Assembly: GCA_015067765.1 (NCBI GenBank)
Contig: SVLV01000012.1
Location: forward strand, 1 to 44,659
Length of the DNA: 44,659 nucleotides
Direction: 5' to 3'
Source: Oscillospiraceae bacterium
Lineage (GTDB): Bacteria > Bacillota > Clostridia > Oscillospirales > Oscillospiraceae
Part shown: positions 7,933-14,245 of the stretch, piece after piece
Layout: each line of letters starts with the position of its first letter
Numbering within the stretch: position 1 is the stretch's first letter
Made by a program: the position numbers and the translations under genes
The notes under the pieces: generated by a model
What the model saw: the letters and a program-made list of their open reading frames with translations, nothing else
What the model was told of the DNA's origin: nothing
The model's database searches: none

Positions 7933-8400
7933 ATGTATTATGTGCATGTGAAATTTCCCAAGCGGCGGGCCGGTCTGCTGATGTGTCTGGTGGCGCTGGT
8001 ACTGGTGACTACCGCGATTCTCTCCGGTTGCTGGGGAAAAAGTGATCCGGGGACAGCTGTGCCCGGCAGCACCAATGAGGAGCGTCTGGCCTACCTGACC
8101 GGTTTGGGCTGGGAGGTGAAACCGGAGCCGGTGGAGACTTTGGAGCTGCAGCTGCCGGAGAATCTGAAGGGAGAATACGGCGATTATCTGAAGCTGCAGC
8201 AGGAAAATGGGCTGCCCTTCCAGCAGTACGGCGGCAAGCAGGTGACCCGATACACCTACACCGTCTGCAACCACCCGGCAGCAGAGAAGGGCGCGCAGGT
8301 AAATCTCTACCTTCACGAAGGGCAAATCATCGGCGGTGATGTGATCCTCACCGGGGAAAACGGGTTTCAGGCCGGTCTGCAGTTCCCCAAACAGTCATAA
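7933..8400 (+). CDS. DUF4830-like lipoprotein or membrane-anchored protein
   Basis: This is a 155-residue protein of unknown function. A basic N terminus (KFPKRRAG) and one hydrophobic segment (about 14-31) end in ILSGC, a plausible lipobox with Cys32, so the mature protein is probably tethered outside the membrane. The rest (LAYLTGLGWEVKPEPVETL, then ENLKGEYGDYLKLQQENGLP) resembles the small DUF4830 domain of Clostridia. This recognition is from memory of the family. AGGTGA precedes the ATG. It is transcribed divergently from the pseudouridine synthase and ends at a shared terminator. Confidence 0.8.
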   Translation: MYYVHVKFPKRRAGLLMCLVALVLVTTAILSGCWGKSDPGTAVPGSTNEERLAYLTGLGWEVKPEPVETLELQLPENLKGEYGDYLKLQQENGLPFQQYGGKQVTRYTYTVCNHPAAEKGAQVNLYLHEGQIIGGDVILTGENGFQAGLQFPKQS

Positions 8401-8432: not shown

Positions 8433-9161
8433 TTACTTGATCAGCATATACAGGCCCAGAGCCCCGACAAAAAGGTAAATTACCTTCTTCAGCAGATCCA
8501 CGTTCATCCGGTCATAGATCATGCTGCCGGGGATCTTGCCCAAAAATCCACCCAACGTGGCCACCGCCACCAGACCCCAGCTGCCCTCCGGCCACTGACC
8601 CAGCCCCATGCGGCCCAGAATACAGATCAGGCCCTGAATGCCGATGGTGGCCTGCAGCGGCACCATATAGTCGTCCTTCTCCTCCATGTTGGCACTGTAA
8701 TACAGGATCAGGGACGGCGTGGCCACAGAGAAGAGGGAACAGAGCAGTCCGGAAAATCCGCCGCACAGGACCGCCGACAGAGGCGTCGCCCGAATACGGA
8801 ACCGGGCCGACAGTTTCCACATCCAGAGGGCCAACAGGATCAGCACCACACCCAGCAGGCGCAGGTATACACTGTCCGTAATGGCCTTCAAAAACCACAG
8901 GCCCGCCACCGCAGAGGCACTGGCCGCAATGGTGGGCAGGGCAATATAGCGCAGATCCAGCTTGCGGAATTTGCCCCACAGCATCCACACACTCATCAGC
9001 ACACCGCTGACCTGTGAGATCACCAGACACTGGTGCACCGGCAAAAACAGGGGCAGCAGCGCCATGCTGATGATCACATAGCCAAAGCCGCCGATGGCCT
9101 GCGCAAAGGAGGCCACCAGCGTTATAATAAATACGAGAAGCACCGTCATCAGATCTGTCAT
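8433..9161 (-). CDS. TauE/SafE-family membrane exporter
   Basis: This is a predicted inner-membrane transporter of the TauE/SafE (DUF81) family, whose characterised members export sulfite or organosulfonates. It has 242 residues and about eight hydrophobic helices in two related halves. Each half opens with a conserved glycine-rich segment: FAQAIGGFGYVIISMALLP near residue 20, and CGGFSGLLCSLFSVATPSLILYY near 132. The substrate is not deducible. AAAGGAG precedes the ATG. It is a single-gene unit between two terminators with a moderate promoter at 9196-9224. Confidence 0.88.
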   Translation of the reverse strand: MTDLMTVLLVFIITLVASFAQAIGGFGYVIISMALLPLFLPVHQCLVISQVSGVLMSVWMLWGKFRKLDLRYIALPTIAASASAVAGLWFLKAITDSVYLRLLGVVLILLALWMWKLSARFRIRATPLSAVLCGGFSGLLCSLFSVATPSLILYYSANMEEKDDYMVPLQATIGIQGLICILGRMGLGQWPEGSWGLVAVATLGGFLGKIPGSMIYDRMNVDLLKKVIYLFVGALGLYMLIK

Positions 9162-9249: not shown

Positions 9250-9278
9250 AAAAAAGCAGGGCCGAAGCCCTGCTTTTT
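9250..9278. terminator. Terminator of the SPFH-TIR-MORN cassette
   Basis: AAAAAGCAGGGC pairs with GCCCTGCTTTTT around a short loop (perfect stem), with T-rich ends on both strands. It lies 8 bases after the stop of the MORN gene and closes the four-gene cassette. Confidence 0.9.
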
Positions 9279-9285
9279 GATTGAT

Positions 9286-10323
9286 TCAGTTTTTGACTGC
9301 TTTGGGTTTCCCTTCCTTGCCCAGCAGGATTTTGGACCGGACAACCGACCCATCCGCGCAGTAGGAGGTACGGGTACCGTTCCATAGACGGTCCTTCTTC
9401 CAGGTCCCGGCACAGACAACCTTTTCGATGCCGTATTCCTTGGGATAGCTGGTCTCCGTGCCCTCCCCTTCAAAGGAGCCGTCAACGATCTCGCCTTCGT
9501 AGGTTCGGCCATCGGTATATCGAAAGATGCCCTTACCGGCGCGCCTGTCCTCATCCTGATGTCCCTCAAACACACCGCCGGCATGCCACTGAATCCGGTA
9601 ATCTCCCCAAATCGCACCGGCCTTTATGGTGCCGATCAGGATATGATCCGGGTTGTAGAAGACACCCTCGCCTTCGATACAGGTTCCGTCCTTCCACACG
9701 CCGACAAACCGGGTGCCATCGGGATGGAGGATCATCGCGTCACCATCCAGTTCATCAGCCACCCAACGGCCCTCCGCCACATCGCCATCTGCATAGTAAT
9801 AGGTTCCCTGGCCGCATTTTTCGCCCAGGTACATATCGCCCTCATACCAGCTGCCGTCGGCATAGCGCCACACACCGCTTCCGCGGCACATCCGGTCCTC
9901 CTCCCATTCAGCAGCAAAGACTCCGCCTTCGCGCCAGGTCAGTGTACCGGATCCGCTGCGCTTGCCGTCCTTCCAGCTGCCATCGTATGTGGCATCCGCA
10001 CAGAACAGTTTGCCCTGACCGCAGTACGCACCGAAAGCCCACTCACCATCGTAGGCAACGCCGTTTTTGTATTCGATCCGGCCCTTGCCGTGGGGAATCC
10101 CTTCCACCACATCGCCCCGGTAGATGCCTTCGCCGTACCAGATCCCGGTCACCGTCTGCTCCGGGGCAGAGAGCTCCTGCAGCACCTTTTTCAGGTCCTG
10201 CACCACATTCTCTGCCACAGGGGACAGAAGCTGCTTCGTTCCGCAGTGCTGGCAGACCGCCGTTGCAGCGCCCTGCTCCACTTCCAGCGTTCCGCCGCAG
10301 ATATTACACCGATACGCAGTCAT
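9286..10323 (-). CDS. Zinc-ribbon/MORN-repeat protein, TIR-less paralogue
   Basis: This 345-residue soluble protein is of unknown function. Residues 5-28 form a CxxC...CxxC zinc ribbon (CNICGG ... CQHCGTK). A short linker (VVQDLKKVLQEL) is followed from about residue 62 by roughly ten MORN repeats of the form YxGxWxxGxxxGxGxxxxxxG. Both the ribbon and the MORN array align closely with the upstream TIR protein, for example the shared GKGRIEYKNG and FGxYCGQGK, and they end with the same TWKKD...YxADGS tail. It is thus that protein without its TPR-TIR block. It starts 43 bases after the TIR gene, with GGAGGA upstream. Inferred role: scaffold, competitor or regulator of the TIR protein. Confidence 0.85.
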   Translation of the reverse strand: MTAYRCNICGGTLEVEQGAATAVCQHCGTKQLLSPVAENVVQDLKKVLQELSAPEQTVTGIWYGEGIYRGDVVEGIPHGKGRIEYKNGVAYDGEWAFGAYCGQGKLFCADATYDGSWKDGKRSGSGTLTWREGGVFAAEWEEDRMCRGSGVWRYADGSWYEGDMYLGEKCGQGTYYYADGDVAEGRWVADELDGDAMILHPDGTRFVGVWKDGTCIEGEGVFYNPDHILIGTIKAGAIWGDYRIQWHAGGVFEGHQDEDRRAGKGIFRYTDGRTYEGEIVDGSFEGEGTETSYPKEYGIEKVVCAGTWKKDRLWNGTRTSYCADGSVVRSKILLGKEGKPKAVKN

Positions 10324-10366
10324 AGCACGTCCTCCTCATTTCAGGGGTCGGATGTTGCTGATATTC

Positions 10367-12178
10367 TTACTTCTTAATGCGTCTCTGGGGCAGTTCCTTG
10401 CCCAGAACCACCTTTGCCTCCCACACGGAGCCGTCAGCGTGGTAATAGGTCCAGGTACCCTTCTGCAGGTCGTCCTTCTTCCAGGTGCCCACACCCACCA
10501 TCTTTTTGTGGGTGCAGCTTGCTGGATTGGGAATGATGGTATAGGTACCTTCGCCCTGGAATTTGCCGTTCACAAACTCGCCATCATAGATACTGCCTCT
10601 CTCATACAGCCACACGCCCTTACCGGTGACACCGTTGGTATCCTGATAGCCCTCAAAGACACCGCCTTCATTCCACTCCAGGCGGAACTTTCCGCTACGG
10701 CCGCCATTTTTCAGCACACCGTAGTAGATGGAATCCGTATAGTGGTAAACACCTTCGCCCTCCACCACCTTATCGTCTCTCCATACACCGGTGAACTTGT
10801 CGCCATTCGAATAGTTCATGACACCCTTGCCGCCCTTTTTGCCATCCACCCAATAGCCGGTCCAGGTGGTACCGGTGGGATAGTGATAGGTGCCTTCCCC
10901 ATTTCTCTGTGCGCCGGACATAGGCCCTTCATACCAGGCGCCATCATCATGGCGCCAGATTCCTTCACCACTGTCCATCTTGTCGTTGACCCACTGGCCG
11001 GTGAAGGATCCGCCCTTGTTCCAGGTCAGTACACCGGGACCGTTGCGCTTTCCGTCCTTCCAGGTACCCTCAAAGACAGAGTCGTTATAAATGCGCTTAC
11101 CCTGGCCGCAGTACTCACCAAAGGCCCAATCGCCGTCGTAGACGGCACCGTTCTTATATTCGATCCGGCCCTTGCCGTGGGGCTTGCCGGCCACCACATC
11201 GCCGCGATAGATACCTTCGTTGTACCACAGCTCCGTCACAGGAGGTGCTGCTGCGGCGGCAGCAGCAGATGCGGGTGCTGCAGAACTCTGCATCACCTTC
11301 TTGATGCCGCGGACCACATCGCTCATAAAGCCGATCTTGCTCATATCCTGTGCCTGCAGGTGGGCAAACTCCTCCGGCAGGTCATAGGCATCCATATCCC
11401 GGTAGCAGGGGATCAGCAGCTTGGAGCGGTCCGCCTTGACGATCTTCAAAAAGCGGCTCCACTCATTCTTGACCCACGTCGCGTTGAAATACTCCGGACG
11501 GGTACCCACCACCAGCATCACCTTGGCAGACTGGAGGGCAGCAAAGATGTAAGGCTCATAGGCCTGACCCAGCTTATCCTCCAGCGTGATGGCGGCATAG
11601 AACACCTTCATCCCCTCGCCGGTCAGCTGGTGATAGATATCATTGGCGATCACGCTGTCCTGGGTGCGCTTGCCCTCAGCGTCCGTCTCCTTGTAGCAGA
11701 TAAACACATCAAAGGGCTCCTCCTGCCGGGCAATGGCCAGAATATCCCGCTGCAGCACGGCAATGGCAGCAGCTTCCGCCTCATAGATGGCCCGCTGCTC
11801 GGGGGTCGCATTCTCCAGCGCTGCCAGGTAGTCCACATCCGACAGGATAGACTCATTCTGCGCACGGTGGCAGGTGGGGATCCGCTTATAGGTAGCAGGA
11901 TCCTCCACATACTCAATACCAAACTTGCACAGCACCAGACCCCAGTAGGCCTCGGCATCGGTGCAGCCGCCGGCAATCACCTTCTCGTAGGTCTCGGCAG
12001 CCTTGTCAAACTCAGACTTCAGACGCAGGTTATTGGCGCGGTTGAACAGGGTGCCCACCACATCATCGGCGGTGCGGGGCAGCGTCTGCTGCGTGCCGCA
12101 ATATTCACAGGTTGCTACAGCGGTACCCGGCTCAATCTCCAGCGAACCGCCGCACATCTTACATTTATACACAGCCAT
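10367..12178 (-). CDS. Zinc-ribbon/TPR-like/TIR/MORN-repeat protein
   Basis: This 603-residue multidomain protein is the probable effector of the cassette. In order: a zinc ribbon with C6, C9, C24 and C27; a TPR-like helical segment (about 42-80, NRANNLRLKSEFDKAAETYEKV); a TIR domain (about 154-295) beginning EPFDVFICYKETD; an alanine-rich linker (296-314); and ten or eleven MORN repeats (about 317-600). TIR domains of bacterial conflict systems hydrolyse or cyclise NAD+. The candidate catalytic glutamate is E208 in GQAYEPYIF, and WVKNEWSRFL near 240 fits the family. Activity is inferred, not shown. It starts 12 bases after the stop of the membrane-protein gene, with AAGGAGA upstream. No signal peptide, so cytoplasmic. 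Confidence 0.9.
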   Translation of the reverse strand: MAVYKCKMCGGSLEIEPGTAVATCEYCGTQQTLPRTADDVVGTLFNRANNLRLKSEFDKAAETYEKVIAGGCTDAEAYWGLVLCKFGIEYVEDPATYKRIPTCHRAQNESILSDVDYLAALENATPEQRAIYEAEAAAIAVLQRDILAIARQEEPFDVFICYKETDAEGKRTQDSVIANDIYHQLTGEGMKVFYAAITLEDKLGQAYEPYIFAALQSAKVMLVVGTRPEYFNATWVKNEWSRFLKIVKADRSKLLIPCYRDMDAYDLPEEFAHLQAQDMSKIGFMSDVVRGIKKVMQSSAAPASAAAAAAAPPVTELWYNEGIYRGDVVAGKPHGKGRIEYKNGAVYDGDWAFGEYCGQGKRIYNDSVFEGTWKDGKRNGPGVLTWNKGGSFTGQWVNDKMDSGEGIWRHDDGAWYEGPMSGAQRNGEGTYHYPTGTTWTGYWVDGKKGGKGVMNYSNGDKFTGVWRDDKVVEGEGVYHYTDSIYYGVLKNGGRSGKFRLEWNEGGVFEGYQDTNGVTGKGVWLYERGSIYDGEFVNGKFQGEGTYTIIPNPASCTHKKMVGVGTWKKDDLQKGTWTYYHADGSVWEAKVVLGKELPQRRIKK

Positions 12179-12190
12179 GATCGTCTCTCC

Positions 12191-12892
12191 TTACTTCAAC
12201 ACTTTGCACTTGGCATTGCGGGCCGCGATCGCAGCCAGCAGACTGTCTGTCAAGGCAGTCACATCGTCGCCGGCCTTGATGGCCGCGGCAAATGCGGCGA
12301 ACTTCTCCGCGATCTCCGCCTCGCTCTCCTGAAGTGCCGGAGCACTCATGGGATCAGAGTACCGCAGGGCATCTGTCACCTTCTTCACGGCAGCCTGCGC
12401 CTCCGCATTGACAGCCTGATGGGTCAGCTGACCGGCATCCACCGTCAACATCTTGAGGAAGGCAGTCTTCTCCGCCACCTTGTCATCCAGATGACTGACA
12501 ATGGCAGCGGCTGCACCGGCCTTAACGACCGCGATGGCATTGGCGCCCAGAGTGATCACGCAGCACACGATGGTCCACAGGAGGGAGCGTCGGGGGTAGG
12601 CCAGGCAGACAGAGGCGGTAATCATCATGGCCGTCACCGCTGCATAGCTGATCCCGATCAAAGGCAGACTGAGGAACATCTTCCCTGCATTGGGCGCAGA
12701 GAATGCCTTATAGCCGCAGGCCAGCTGGCCCAAAAATGCCAGCGTAACGAAGATATACCCCGCCCAGAACACGCCGCCGTACTTGGGCATTCCCGCGATC
12801 TCATCGGGGGTAACGAAACAGACCACATTGAACACAGCCAGCTCAATGGCCCAGATGAGGGCATAGACCTTAAATCCCTTTTTCATTGTCAT
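12191..12892 (-). CDS. Four-helix membrane protein of unknown function
   Basis: I do not recognise this family. Four hydrophobic helices occupy roughly the first 150 residues: VYALIWAIELAVFNVVCFV, FWAGYIFVTLAFLGQLACG, a third around ISYAAVTAMMITASVCLA and a fourth at LLWTIVCCVITLGANAIAVV. An alanine-rich helical cytoplasmic tail of about 80 residues follows. The start is set at 12892, where TGATG overlaps the SPFH stop by one base; the ATG at 12886 (MKKGFK) is equally possible and better spaced from AGAGG. The overlap indicates translational coupling to the SPFH protein, so this may be its membrane partner or the anchor of the cassette. Confidence 0.8.
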   Translation of the reverse strand: MTMKKGFKVYALIWAIELAVFNVVCFVTPDEIAGMPKYGGVFWAGYIFVTLAFLGQLACGYKAFSAPNAGKMFLSLPLIGISYAAVTAMMITASVCLAYPRRSLLWTIVCCVITLGANAIAVVKAGAAAAIVSHLDDKVAEKTAFLKMLTVDAGQLTHQAVNAEAQAAVKKVTDALRYSDPMSAPALQESEAEIAEKFAAFAAAIKAGDDVTALTDSLLAAIAARNAKCKVLK

Positions 12893-14097
12893 CAACCTCT
12901 CTTCGTACCGCACTTGGGACAGAATTTACCGGGTTTTTCAAACTTATAGCCGCAGTTCTCACAGAAGGCTGCGGGAGCCGCCACCTGCACCGGAGTACCG
13001 CACTCCTCGCAGAAGGCCGCACCGGGTGCCAGAGCCGTGCCGCAATTCTCGCAGAAACCTGCTGCCGTGGGAGCTGCCGGGGCAACCGGAGCAGCAGGAG
13101 CGGCGGGAACACCCATGTGGCCCATAGCGTCATTCATAGAGCCGACTACTGCTCCGCCAACCACACCGCCGACACCCATCATGGTGCCAAGTCCGATGCC
13201 CATGTTGGTAAACTGGCCCACGGACTCATTGGCAGCAGCAGCGGCGGCCACATCAAAGCCGCGCTCCTGTGCATAGGTATAGCCCTCCTGGGCACGCTTG
13301 GTGGCCTGTGCCTGAGAGTCGATGACGACCTTCTGAGCCTCCGTCTGGGCATAGATGATATCGGTCTGCTGACGCAGTTTGGCCTCAGCAATATCGGCAT
13401 ACTGGCGGAAGTGCAGTTCCTTGAACTTCTCAAACTGCTTGTCGCCATCGGGCTTGACGATATTGGTGACGAAGAAGCTCTCCAGCGCCACACCGTACTC
13501 AGCGAAATCGTTGACCAGCAGGTCCTTGATCTGCTGGGAGAACAGGGACAGGTTCTCGTCAATCTCAAAGATGTTGATCTTGTTGGCCTTGATGGTCTGG
13601 GCGATATAGGTCTTCACCTTGGTCATCAGGAAGGCGCGGAAGAACTTCACCAGCTGGGCCTGATCCAGCATGGACTCGGTACCCACCAGCTTCAGCAGCA
13701 GCTTGCGGCTATCCTCCGCCCGCAGGCTCATCTCACCGGATGCGCCAATGGAGATGGGGAACCCATAGGTGGGCTCCACATACTGGACCTTGCTGTCGGT
13801 GCCCCACTTTACAGCCATCTGCTCCGTCTTGTTGATGAAGTAAACTTCGCAGTGGAAGGGGGACTCGTCGCCGGTCAGGCGATTGAGCAGCTTGCCGATC
13901 AGCGGAATATTCTGCGTCTCCAGAGTATGTCTGCCGGGCCCGAACAGATCCAGAGCCTGGCCATTCATGAAGAAGAGAGCTTCCTGGCTTTCATGTACGA
14001 TCAGCTGGGAGAAATAGTTAAAGTCCTCTACCGGATGTTTCCAGATAAAGGTTGAATTATCTCCTTCGTACTTAATGACATCTGCAATCTTTGCCAT
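12892..14097 (-). CDS. SPFH-domain protein with C-terminal zinc ribbons (YdjI-like)
   Basis: This 401-residue protein is of the SPFH/Band 7 type once labelled 'virion core protein', to which B. subtilis YdjI belongs. Such proteins oligomerise on membranes and recruit partners. The SPFH region covers about 25-215 (HESQEALFFMNGQALDLFGPGRH near the start). Next come a coiled-coil stretch (220-280, RQYADIAEAKLRQQTDIIYAQ), a glycine-rich hydrophobic hinge (295-325), a Pro/Ala linker, and two CxxC-CxxC zinc ribbons (C349/C352/C363/C366 and C379/C382/C393/C396). There is no signal peptide. A strong AAGGAGG precedes the ATG. First gene of the cassette, with its own promoter. Confidence 0.92.
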   Translation of the reverse strand: MAKIADVIKYEGDNSTFIWKHPVEDFNYFSQLIVHESQEALFFMNGQALDLFGPGRHTLETQNIPLIGKLLNRLTGDESPFHCEVYFINKTEQMAVKWGTDSKVQYVEPTYGFPISIGASGEMSLRAEDSRKLLLKLVGTESMLDQAQLVKFFRAFLMTKVKTYIAQTIKANKINIFEIDENLSLFSQQIKDLLVNDFAEYGVALESFFVTNIVKPDGDKQFEKFKELHFRQYADIAEAKLRQQTDIIYAQTEAQKVVIDSQAQATKRAQEGYTYAQERGFDVAAAAAANESVGQFTNMGIGLGTMMGVGGVVGGAVVGSMNDAMGHMGVPAAPAAPVAPAAPTAAGFCENCGTALAPGAAFCEECGTPVQVAAPAAFCENCGYKFEKPGKFCPKCGTKRG

Positions 14098-14216: not shown

Positions 14217-14245
14217 AGAATACCACAAGAAATTCCAATTTACAA
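14217..14245 (-). promoter_or_regulatory. Promoter of the SPFH-TIR-MORN cassette
   Basis: The minus strand reads TTGTAA (14240-14245), a 17-base spacer, then TATTCT (14217-14222), downstream of the tuf terminator. The predicted leader is about 115 bases. A possible alternative AT-rich -10 lies nearer the gene. Confidence 0.6.

What the first reader, a model, noticed from the sequence alone, without database searches (positions are those of the whole stretch)
9286..14097. Four-gene SPFH / membrane / TIR-MORN / MORN cassette: candidate signalling or defence system
Seen: four minus-strand genes with gaps of at most 43 bases (one 1-base overlap), one promoter (14217-14245) and one terminator (9250-9278). 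Products are an SPFH protein with two zinc ribbons, a four-helix membrane protein, a zinc-ribbon/TPR-like/TIR/10-11 MORN protein with candidate catalytic E208, and a zinc-ribbon/MORN paralogue. Known: TIR domains in bacterial defence consume NAD+; SPFH proteins build membrane platforms; MORN repeats can bind lipid or protein. Inferred: a membrane-damage or phage-triggered abortive system in which the SPFH platform senses the envelope and releases the TIR effector. I know of no named system with this four-part layout.
Basis: partly seen in the sequence, partly recalled or inferred. Interest (0 to 1): 0.88.

Follow-up and report, generated by a model that had tools for sequence, protein, structure and literature searches.

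The report
Membrane platform with swappable TIR receptors
A gut bacterium carries a small gene set in which a membrane scaffold appears to hold a TIR-domain protein, a type of immune enzyme, whose sensing end differs freely between relatives, so it may be an unnamed bacterial immune receptor system.

Summary
The four genes are real and lie as described. None of 18 sister stretches has the cassette at the tuf site, and 15 keep the same flank, so the block was probably acquired. The set is one variant of a wider layout: an SPFH protein and a 4-helix membrane protein next to zinc-ribbon-tagged client genes. Here the client is zinc ribbon-TPR-TIR with an exchangeable C-terminus. In 394 genomes of the order, 29 of 32 TIR-positive genomes also carry this SPFH family (Fisher 1.6e-24). 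Of 126 relatives, 65 have one predicted transmembrane helix after TIR, all TIR-inside; many ends are DUF6273 or RCC1. Same-locus paralogues can share 95-98% of the TIR module yet differ at the end. Two loci carry diversity-generating retroelements; where comparable, 21 of 21 differences are at A. SIR2-, AbiH- and HEPN-like neighbours suggest defence. MORN was on none of 150 other TIR-profile ORFs. NAD+ cleavage, docking and defence are inferred, not shown. Best reading: a TIR receptor/NADase held on an SPFH membrane platform.

The parts
12892..14097 (-). SPFH (Band_7_1, YdjI-like) protein with two C-terminal zinc ribbons; no TM helix at the stricter threshold, one marginal at the looser: presumed submembrane platform
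12191..12892 (-). four-helix membrane protein with helical bundle (233 aa), presumed anchor of the SPFH protein; no Pfam match, no PDB match at E<=0.001
10367..12178 (-). zinc ribbon - TPR-like - TIR - MORN protein (603 aa): presumed receptor/effector
11324..11731 (-). TIR domain of the above (residues 150-285)
11555..11557 (-). codon of E208, candidate catalytic glutamate
10520..11209 (-). MORN repeat block (residues 324-553), at the sensor position
9286..10323 (-). zinc ribbon - MORN paralogue (345 aa), like the TIR-MORN gene without its TPR-TIR part; presumed regulator, decoy or co-receptor
14217..14245 (-). weak promoter-like site TTGTAA-17-TATTCT (8 of 12)
   Evidence: read; not found
9250..9273 (-). 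intrinsic terminator
8433..9161 (-). membrane protein (TauE-like by eye, name recalled, not scanned) between the cassette and the conserved flank; no match in the sister stretches, so perhaps part of the inserted block

Best explanation
The cassette is one variant of an unnamed immune-receptor layout of Clostridia. The SPFH protein and the 4-helix membrane protein form a submembrane platform, like B. subtilis YdjI with its membrane anchors. Client proteins carry an N-terminal zinc ribbon, probably the docking tag. Here the client is zinc ribbon-TPR-TIR joined to a MORN sensor; in relatives the sensor is often a C-lectin-like, RCC1 or LRR domain, in about half of them behind one transmembrane helix and so predicted outside. 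Ligand binding by the C-terminal domain would cluster the TIR domains on the platform and switch on NAD+ cleavage (E208), stopping growth or killing the cell. The TIR-less zinc ribbon-MORN paralogue would compete for ligand or platform and tune the response. Shown here: gene linkage, modular exchange of the ends, predicted topology, an A-restricted retroelement aimed at one relative's sensor, absence of the block from sister sites. Inferred: zinc-ribbon docking, NADase activity, clustering, MORN as sensor, the paralogue's role, defence as outcome.
For: (1) Linkage: 58 of 79 TIR-module loci have this SPFH within 4 genes, 55 in an unbroken same-strand run with gaps <=150 bases; SPFH and membrane protein adjacent in 51. 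In 394 genomes of the order, own included: TIR module (E<1e-50) 32, SPFH (E<1e-40) 58, both 29, p 1.6e-24. (2) Modularity: the 300-residue module is 48-69% identical to the window's in 11 relatives, while 115 C-termini match DUF6273 (43), RCC1_2 (21), TPR_2 (19), LRR_5 (7). Two L086 paralogues share 97.7% of the module but 35% over 212 of 334 C-terminal residues; two in L083 share 95% with no significant C-terminal match. (3) Topology: 65 of 126 non-redundant relatives have one helix after TIR, all 65 with more K/R on the TIR side. (4) Sensor diversification: L119 has target gene, Avd-like gene, template repeat and RT; 21 of 21 template-target differences are at A. L078 has SPFH, membrane protein, TIR gene, Avd, template and RT in a row. 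In 20 distinct equal-length repeats, inner positions whose template codon has A at position 1 or 2 average 2.88 bits (19) against 0.86 (11), p 5.6e-6. (5) Clients: N-terminal zinc ribbons in 27 of 173 non-TIR operon neighbours of SPFH against 19 of 1167 other genes (p 7e-14); 22 of 36 SPFH loci without TIR have such a gene within 4 genes. (6) Defence company: of 77 extra operon proteins, SIR2_2 4, AbiH 3, DUF2971 2, HEPN pEK499_p136 2, PADLOC PDC-S31 3; a small family in six loci has R-N-x-x-I-H in 6 of 6 members. (7) Acquisition and patchiness. (8) E208 aligned with E in 150 of 150 modules.
Against: No activity, binding or phage data. 21 of 79 TIR loci show no SPFH in the DNA held, some cut by contig ends; 3 of 32 TIR genomes lack it. 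SPFH occurs without TIR in 29 of 58 genomes, so the platform has other jobs. The window's TIR protein has no TM helix, as do 41 of 126 relatives; 20 more have 2-5, so the outside-sensor picture is partial and does not fit the window. MORN as sensor rests on position only. DGR machinery is rare: complete in 2 of 79 loci, remnant in 1, and no such RT shares a contig with a strong TIR module in the 394-genome sample. The other variable repeats are not shown to come from the L119 template. The 77 operon proteins also match many housekeeping families and no control set was scanned. Zinc-ribbon counts are not corrected for relatedness. The model is poor just where E208 lies (residues 191-210, pLDDT 67-72), and in a weak alignment with plant L6 (E 0.28) E208 does not pair with a glutamate. 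No match in phage or plasmid collections.
Confidence: 0.52

Rival explanations
1. Envelope-stress system of the Psp/YdjI type: the platform senses membrane damage, the TIR protein is a stress transducer or scaffold, and defence is incidental.
For: SPFH is of the YdjI family (PF13421 plus C-terminal zinc ribbons); YdjI needs membrane partners and serves PspA in B. subtilis (PMC8581546, abstract and passages). Peptidoglycan-binding neighbours in L045. SPFH without TIR in 29 of 58 genomes.
Against: No PspA (PF04012) match in the window's genome (assembly 79% complete). Patchy TIR presence (2 of 32 in the genus), variable and in two loci DGR-linked ends, SIR2/AbiH/HEPN-like neighbours are not what a housekeeping stress response needs.
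Confidence: 0.22
2. Receptor system against other bacteria or their toxins, or for kin/surface recognition: variable ends outside the cell bind neighbours' molecules, not phages.
For: 65 of 65 single-TM relatives have the C-terminus outside by charge; DUF6273 ends resemble C-type lectins (PMC10743442, passages) and one is DGR-varied.
Against: The same features suit sensing of phage adsorption; SIR2, AbiH and HEPN-like neighbours point to arrest or death responses; the window's own variant is not membrane-spanning.
Confidence: 0.14
3. The TIR domain is catalytically dead and acts as a protein-protein adaptor.
For: The nearest solved TIR by profile is an animal Toll-like receptor TIR (7ylf, E 5.1e-5), a group that signals by interaction; the NADase call rests on one residue and recalled motifs.
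Against: E208 is E in 150 of 150 modules, which an adaptor alone would hardly need; it sits at the start of a helix in the model (208-217, low confidence there), the place expected for the NADase glutamate (SARM1 comparison recalled).
Confidence: 0.1
4. Chance neighbours: four unrelated genes that happen to lie together.
For: The exact four-gene set with MORN was seen only in this genome.
Against: SPFH, membrane protein and TIR module recur together across families; near-zero gaps and one terminator.
Confidence: 0.02

Closest known systems
B. subtilis pspA-ydjGHI operon (YdjI SPFH platform)
   Same: Same SPFH family (Band_7 with C-terminal zinc ribbon, soluble), adjacent membrane protein, and a partner with zinc ribbons (YdjG has two; PMC11237479, passages, which calls the band-7 protein YdjL).
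   Different: No PspA match in this genome; the membrane protein has no Pfam match; the client is a TIR protein.
TIR NADase defence (Thoeris ThsB and relatives)
   Same: TIR domain with a fully conserved glutamate; some relatives' loci also carry a SIR2_2 protein.
   Different: No ThsA-like gene in the cassette; ThsB E 0.023, ThcB4 15.9 bits against a cut-off of 220; platform, zinc ribbon and C-terminal sensors are not Thoeris parts (recalled).
DGR-diversified conflict systems of multicellular bacteria (PMC10907252, passages)
   Same: C-lectin sensor ends varied by a DGR and linked to TIR or other effectors.
   Different: The passages seen name STAND NTPase and VMAP ternary systems and no SPFH partner; 'Clostridi' and 'Firmicutes' have 0 occurrences in the text held. 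The window itself has no DGR repeat.
Animal Toll-like receptors (works like, not a member)
   Same: In 65 of 126 relatives: sensor and TIR on opposite sides of one predicted helix; nearest solved TIR is a Toll-like receptor's.
   Different: TIR is N-terminal, presumed enzymatic and platform-docked; the window's variant has no helix.
Simple bacterial TIR-MORN proteins (L164 641 aa, L168 757 aa; TIR recognised by eye only)
   Same: TIR-like N-terminus followed by MORN repeats in the same order of bacteria.
   Different: No match to the zinc ribbon-TPR-TIR module, and no SPFH or membrane-protein match in the stretch held.

Membership tests
YdjI-type SPFH platform | Band_7_1 SPFH domain with C-terminal zinc ribbon, no TM anchor | tested here: met
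   (PF13421 2.9e-40, DZR 3e-10); no helix at the stricter hydropathy threshold, one marginal at the looser
YdjI-type SPFH platform | adjacent membrane protein | tested here: met
   window, and 51 of 79 loci
Phage shock protein (Psp) system | PspA/IM30 protein | tested here: not met
   0 matches to PF04012 in the genome, control genomes ring in 9 of 14; assembly 79% complete, so absence is provisional
Thoeris | TIR protein of the ThsB family | tested here: not met
   ThsB E 0.023; ThcB4 15.9 bits against cut-off 220
Thoeris | ThsA (SIR2-SLOG or similar) partner | tested here: not met
   none among the four cassette proteins; two relatives' SIR2_2 proteins show no SLOG match
TIR NADase effectors | catalytic glutamate | tested here: inconclusive
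   E208 fully conserved, but that it is the catalytic position is recalled; it does not pair with the L6 glutamate in a weak alignment and the model is poor there
TIR NADase effectors | NAD(P)+ cleavage | not testable with these tools
   needs an assay
DGR target | template and variable repeat differing at A only, with RT | tested here: not met
   none in the window; met in relative L119
Toll-like receptor layout | sensor and TIR on opposite sides of one TM helix | tested here: not met
   window protein has no TM helix; met by prediction in 65 of 126 relatives
Mobile cassette | empty site in relatives | tested here: met
   15 of 18 sister stretches keep tuf and the next genes without cassette; the other 3 have another order and no cassette there

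The most novel reading that the evidence does not exclude
Clostridia carry a receptor repertoire built on an SPFH membrane platform: zinc-ribbon-tagged TIR enzymes whose sensor ends, often outside the cell, are swapped between paralogues and in some lineages rewritten by diversity-generating retroelements, a bacterial counterpart of a diversifying Toll-like receptor system; the window is a MORN-sensor branch with its own TIR-less partner.
Probability: 0.42. Interest if true: 0.93.

Novelty: new variant of a known kind. Interest (0 to 1): 0.78.

Why it matters
It would tie flotillin-like membrane platforms to TIR immunity, give bacteria a receptor layout comparable with Toll-like receptors, and show sensor diversification in gut Clostridia. 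The paralogue pairs with near-identical TIR modules and different ends are ready-made tests of what each sensor sees.

Tried and rejected
Rejected: Thoeris or another named system (weak hits only). Rejected: phage- or plasmid-borne cassette (no match; one IMG/VR contig, L230, carries a TIR relative, not pursued). Rejected: MORN as a usual end of this family (152 TIR-profile ORFs, the only two with MORN are the window's). Rejected: L119-type DGR as a general part (9 of 394 genomes have such an RT at E<=1e-60; of these only G364 is among the 32 strong TIR genomes, with RT and TIR on different contigs). Led nowhere: Foldseek of the membrane protein (0 of 127 matches at E<=0.001); first PDB profile search swamped by TPR and propeller designs; full-length SPFH search swamped by zinc ribbons, so the SPFH domain alone (A4) was used later. 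Weak: SPFH-TIR distance correlation r 0.255, 0 of 2000 permutations, not corrected for species descent. A first entropy comparison included ends fixed by my own search pattern and one duplicate row; one search leaves both out and replaces it. A first, looser count of the 79 loci gave SPFH 59, membrane protein 53, TIR 78; one search replaces it. A shadow ORF in L197 was among the 27 zinc-ribbon neighbours; without it 26 of 172. E thresholds of the co-occurrence table were chosen after seeing the lists, which I copied by hand into. Of 81 operon proteins listed I scanned 77, leaving out the window's 8436-9161 and one each of L078, L115 and L131.
Full report
What is there. The four minus-strand genes are confirmed with the stated limits, gaps and overlap. 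The terminator is strong, the promoter weak (8 of 12, below the scan's threshold). The fourth protein aligns to the third over residues 1-44 and again from 287 to the end, so it reads as a copy of the same gene without the TPR-TIR part. AlphaFold gives a good membrane-protein model (pLDDT 91.7; no PDB relative at E<=0.001) and a usable TIR-MORN model (78.8 overall; TIR part mostly about 90, but 67-72 over residues 191-210, which hold E208). Its MORN part matches Morn1 structures (1.6e-15). E208 aligns with E in 150 of 150 full-length modules held, window included.

How it got there. In the genus the TIR module is in 2 of 32 genomes. Of 20 other genomes with a tuf match I fetched the downstream side of 18; G009 and G019 were left out because the match ends at a contig edge. 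None of the 18 stretches has a match to the SPFH, membrane, TIR or MORN proteins; 15 keep tuf followed by the gene equivalent to window 7933-8400 and further genes in order; 3 have another order. G005, the other TIR-positive genome, is among the 15 and has its TIR genes on another contig. The block is therefore acquired here, or was lost many times over.

What it belongs to. By record title most are Clostridia; the exceptions are one Solobacterium, one Acholeplasmataceae, two labelled Chloroflexi, one Bacillota and one only 'bacterium'. By profile all 79 have the TIR module, 58 the SPFH, 53 the membrane protein, 55 an unbroken same-strand run between TIR and SPFH, and 36 have two or more TIR genes. 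In 394 genomes of the order, the own one included: TIR 32, SPFH 58, both 29, Fisher p 1.6e-24 (from; thresholds set by me after seeing the lists, genomes not independent). In a class sample 22 of 391 genomes match at 1e-25.

A platform with clients. Half of the SPFH genomes have no strong TIR module. SPFH loci without a TIR gene often stand next to other proteins that begin with a zinc ribbon: 22 of 36 such loci have one within 4 genes. Excluding TIR genes, 27 of 173 operon neighbours carry an N-terminal zinc ribbon against 19 of 1167 other genes in the same loci (odds ratio 11; related loci not thinned out). YdjG of B. subtilis has two zinc ribbons (PMC11237479, passages), and YdjI needs YdjG/H to reach the membrane (PMC8581546, abstract and passages). 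I infer that the ribbon is the docking tag. The window's genome has no PspA match, so the usual YdjI client seems absent.

Sensors that change. Of 126 non-redundant TIR relatives, 65 have one predicted helix after TIR, 41 none and 20 two to five; 65 of 65 single-helix proteins are TIR-inside by flanking charge. Across 115 C-termini Pfam finds DUF6273 (43), RCC1_2 (21), TPR_2 (19), LRR_5 (7) among the 25 families listed of 86. Among 54 same-locus pairs the module averages 66% identity and the C-terminal part 17% (identity times coverage); two pairs with 95% and 97.7% identical modules have dissimilar ends. DUF6273 resembles the C-type lectin fold (PMC10743442, passages). L119, a 4,992-base contig without SPFH, carries a DGR aimed at this end: a 126-base repeat pair, 21 of 21 differences at A in the template, a bAvd-like gene (9.2e-9, below Pfam's cut-off) and an RT (RVT_1 5.3e-20). 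L078 has the same RT (87%) and Avd (90%) behind SPFH, membrane protein and TIR gene, and a template repeat; its variable repeat could not be compared. L131 has three regions similar to the template at the ends of three TIR genes, and an RT remnant. In 20 distinct repeats of equal length, leaving out the ends fixed by my search pattern, 19 positions whose template codon has A at position 1 or 2 average 2.88 bits of entropy and 11 others 0.86 (p 5.6e-6); only 32 of 162 TIR-profile ORFs have such a repeat at all, and a link of the others to this template is not shown. Against generality: complete DGRs in 2 of 79 loci, and none on a contig with a strong TIR module in the order sample.

The window's own branch. 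MORN at the sensor position is so far unique: among 152 TIR-profile ORFs longer than 330 residues only the window's two have it, and no other genome matched both halves except a 31% match over residues 152-486 in a 378-residue frame (G771). TIR-MORN-like proteins of another make occur in the order (L164, L168, TIR by eye). The window's protein has no predicted helix, so it would sense inside the cell or at the inner membrane face.

Defence or stress. Of 77 extra operon proteins, Pfam finds SIR2_2 in 4, AbiH in 3, DUF2971, DUF4760 and HEPN pEK499_p136 in 2 each, PADLOC PDC-S31 in 3 and RT_UG26 in 1. A further small family in six loci has an R-N-x-x-I-H motif in 6 of 6 members, HEPN-like by a recalled rule; Pfam did not name the L085 and L066 members. 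The same 77 also match RCC1 (6), Band_7 (4), NfeD (3) and single housekeeping families, and no control set was scanned. An integrase-like family lies within five genes in 7 loci (Pfam integrase in 1 of the 77). With patchy presence and varied ends this favours immunity over a housekeeping stress response, but no experiment says so.

Literature. SPFH + TIR domain + MORN: 0 papers; TIR domain + flotillin + bacteria + zinc ribbon: 0; TIR domain + SPFH + anti-phage: 0; SPFH + TIR + phage defense: 1, in whose main text SPFH stands once, in the reference list; at least three of Band-7, TIR, SIR2, HEPN: 10 listed, one looked into by passages; DUF6273: 5 listed, one looked into by passages; DGR + TIR domain: 6 listed, PMC10907252 looked into by passages for TIR; TIR + MORN repeat + bacteria + NAD: 4 listings that look unrelated by title. 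No bioRxiv collection and few subscription papers are held, so absence holds only for these searches.

Verdict. Mechanism confidence 0.52; interest 0.78.

Noticed in passing
L119:334-4761: Complete diversity-generating retroelement (TIR-DUF6273 target, Avd-like gene, template repeat, reverse transcriptase) aimed at the end of a TIR receptor.
   Followed up: yes
L078:2551-7757: SPFH-membrane-TIR operon followed by Avd, template repeat and RT 87-90% identical to those of L119.
   Followed up: partly
L131:2404-11305: Three TIR genes ending in regions similar to the L119 template, and only a 63-residue RT remnant: looks like a decayed DGR.
   Followed up: partly
L044:14631-15560, L132:13065-14021; also L047, L087, L121: SIR2_2-type protein family beside TIR genes in five loci.
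   Followed up: partly
L057:9064-13800: In a sister of the genus the SPFH-membrane pair is followed by a 664-aa zinc-ribbon protein and a HerA-like ATPase (PADLOC mad8 6e-17). The 664-aa protein also stands in L200 and L202; in L202 a 907-aa ORF follows, not scanned.
   Followed up: no
L042, L066, L085, L097, L104, L111: Small protein family with an R-N-x-x-I-H motif in 6 of 6 members beside TIR or SPFH genes, possibly HEPN.
   Followed up: partly
L230:5418-10463: An IMG/VR 'viral' contig carries a TIR-module gene with ORFs of SPFH and membrane-protein size upstream (size only, not tested).
   Followed up: no
L045:9086-9470 and the many loci where the SPFH match starts at residue 128: Many SPFH relatives have an extra N-terminal region of about 127 residues; the one scanned (L045) has no Pfam match there.
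   Followed up: no
G000:C49:18392-18838: A second, contig-edge SPFH gene of the same Pfam family in the window's genome (9.8e-18).
   Followed up: no
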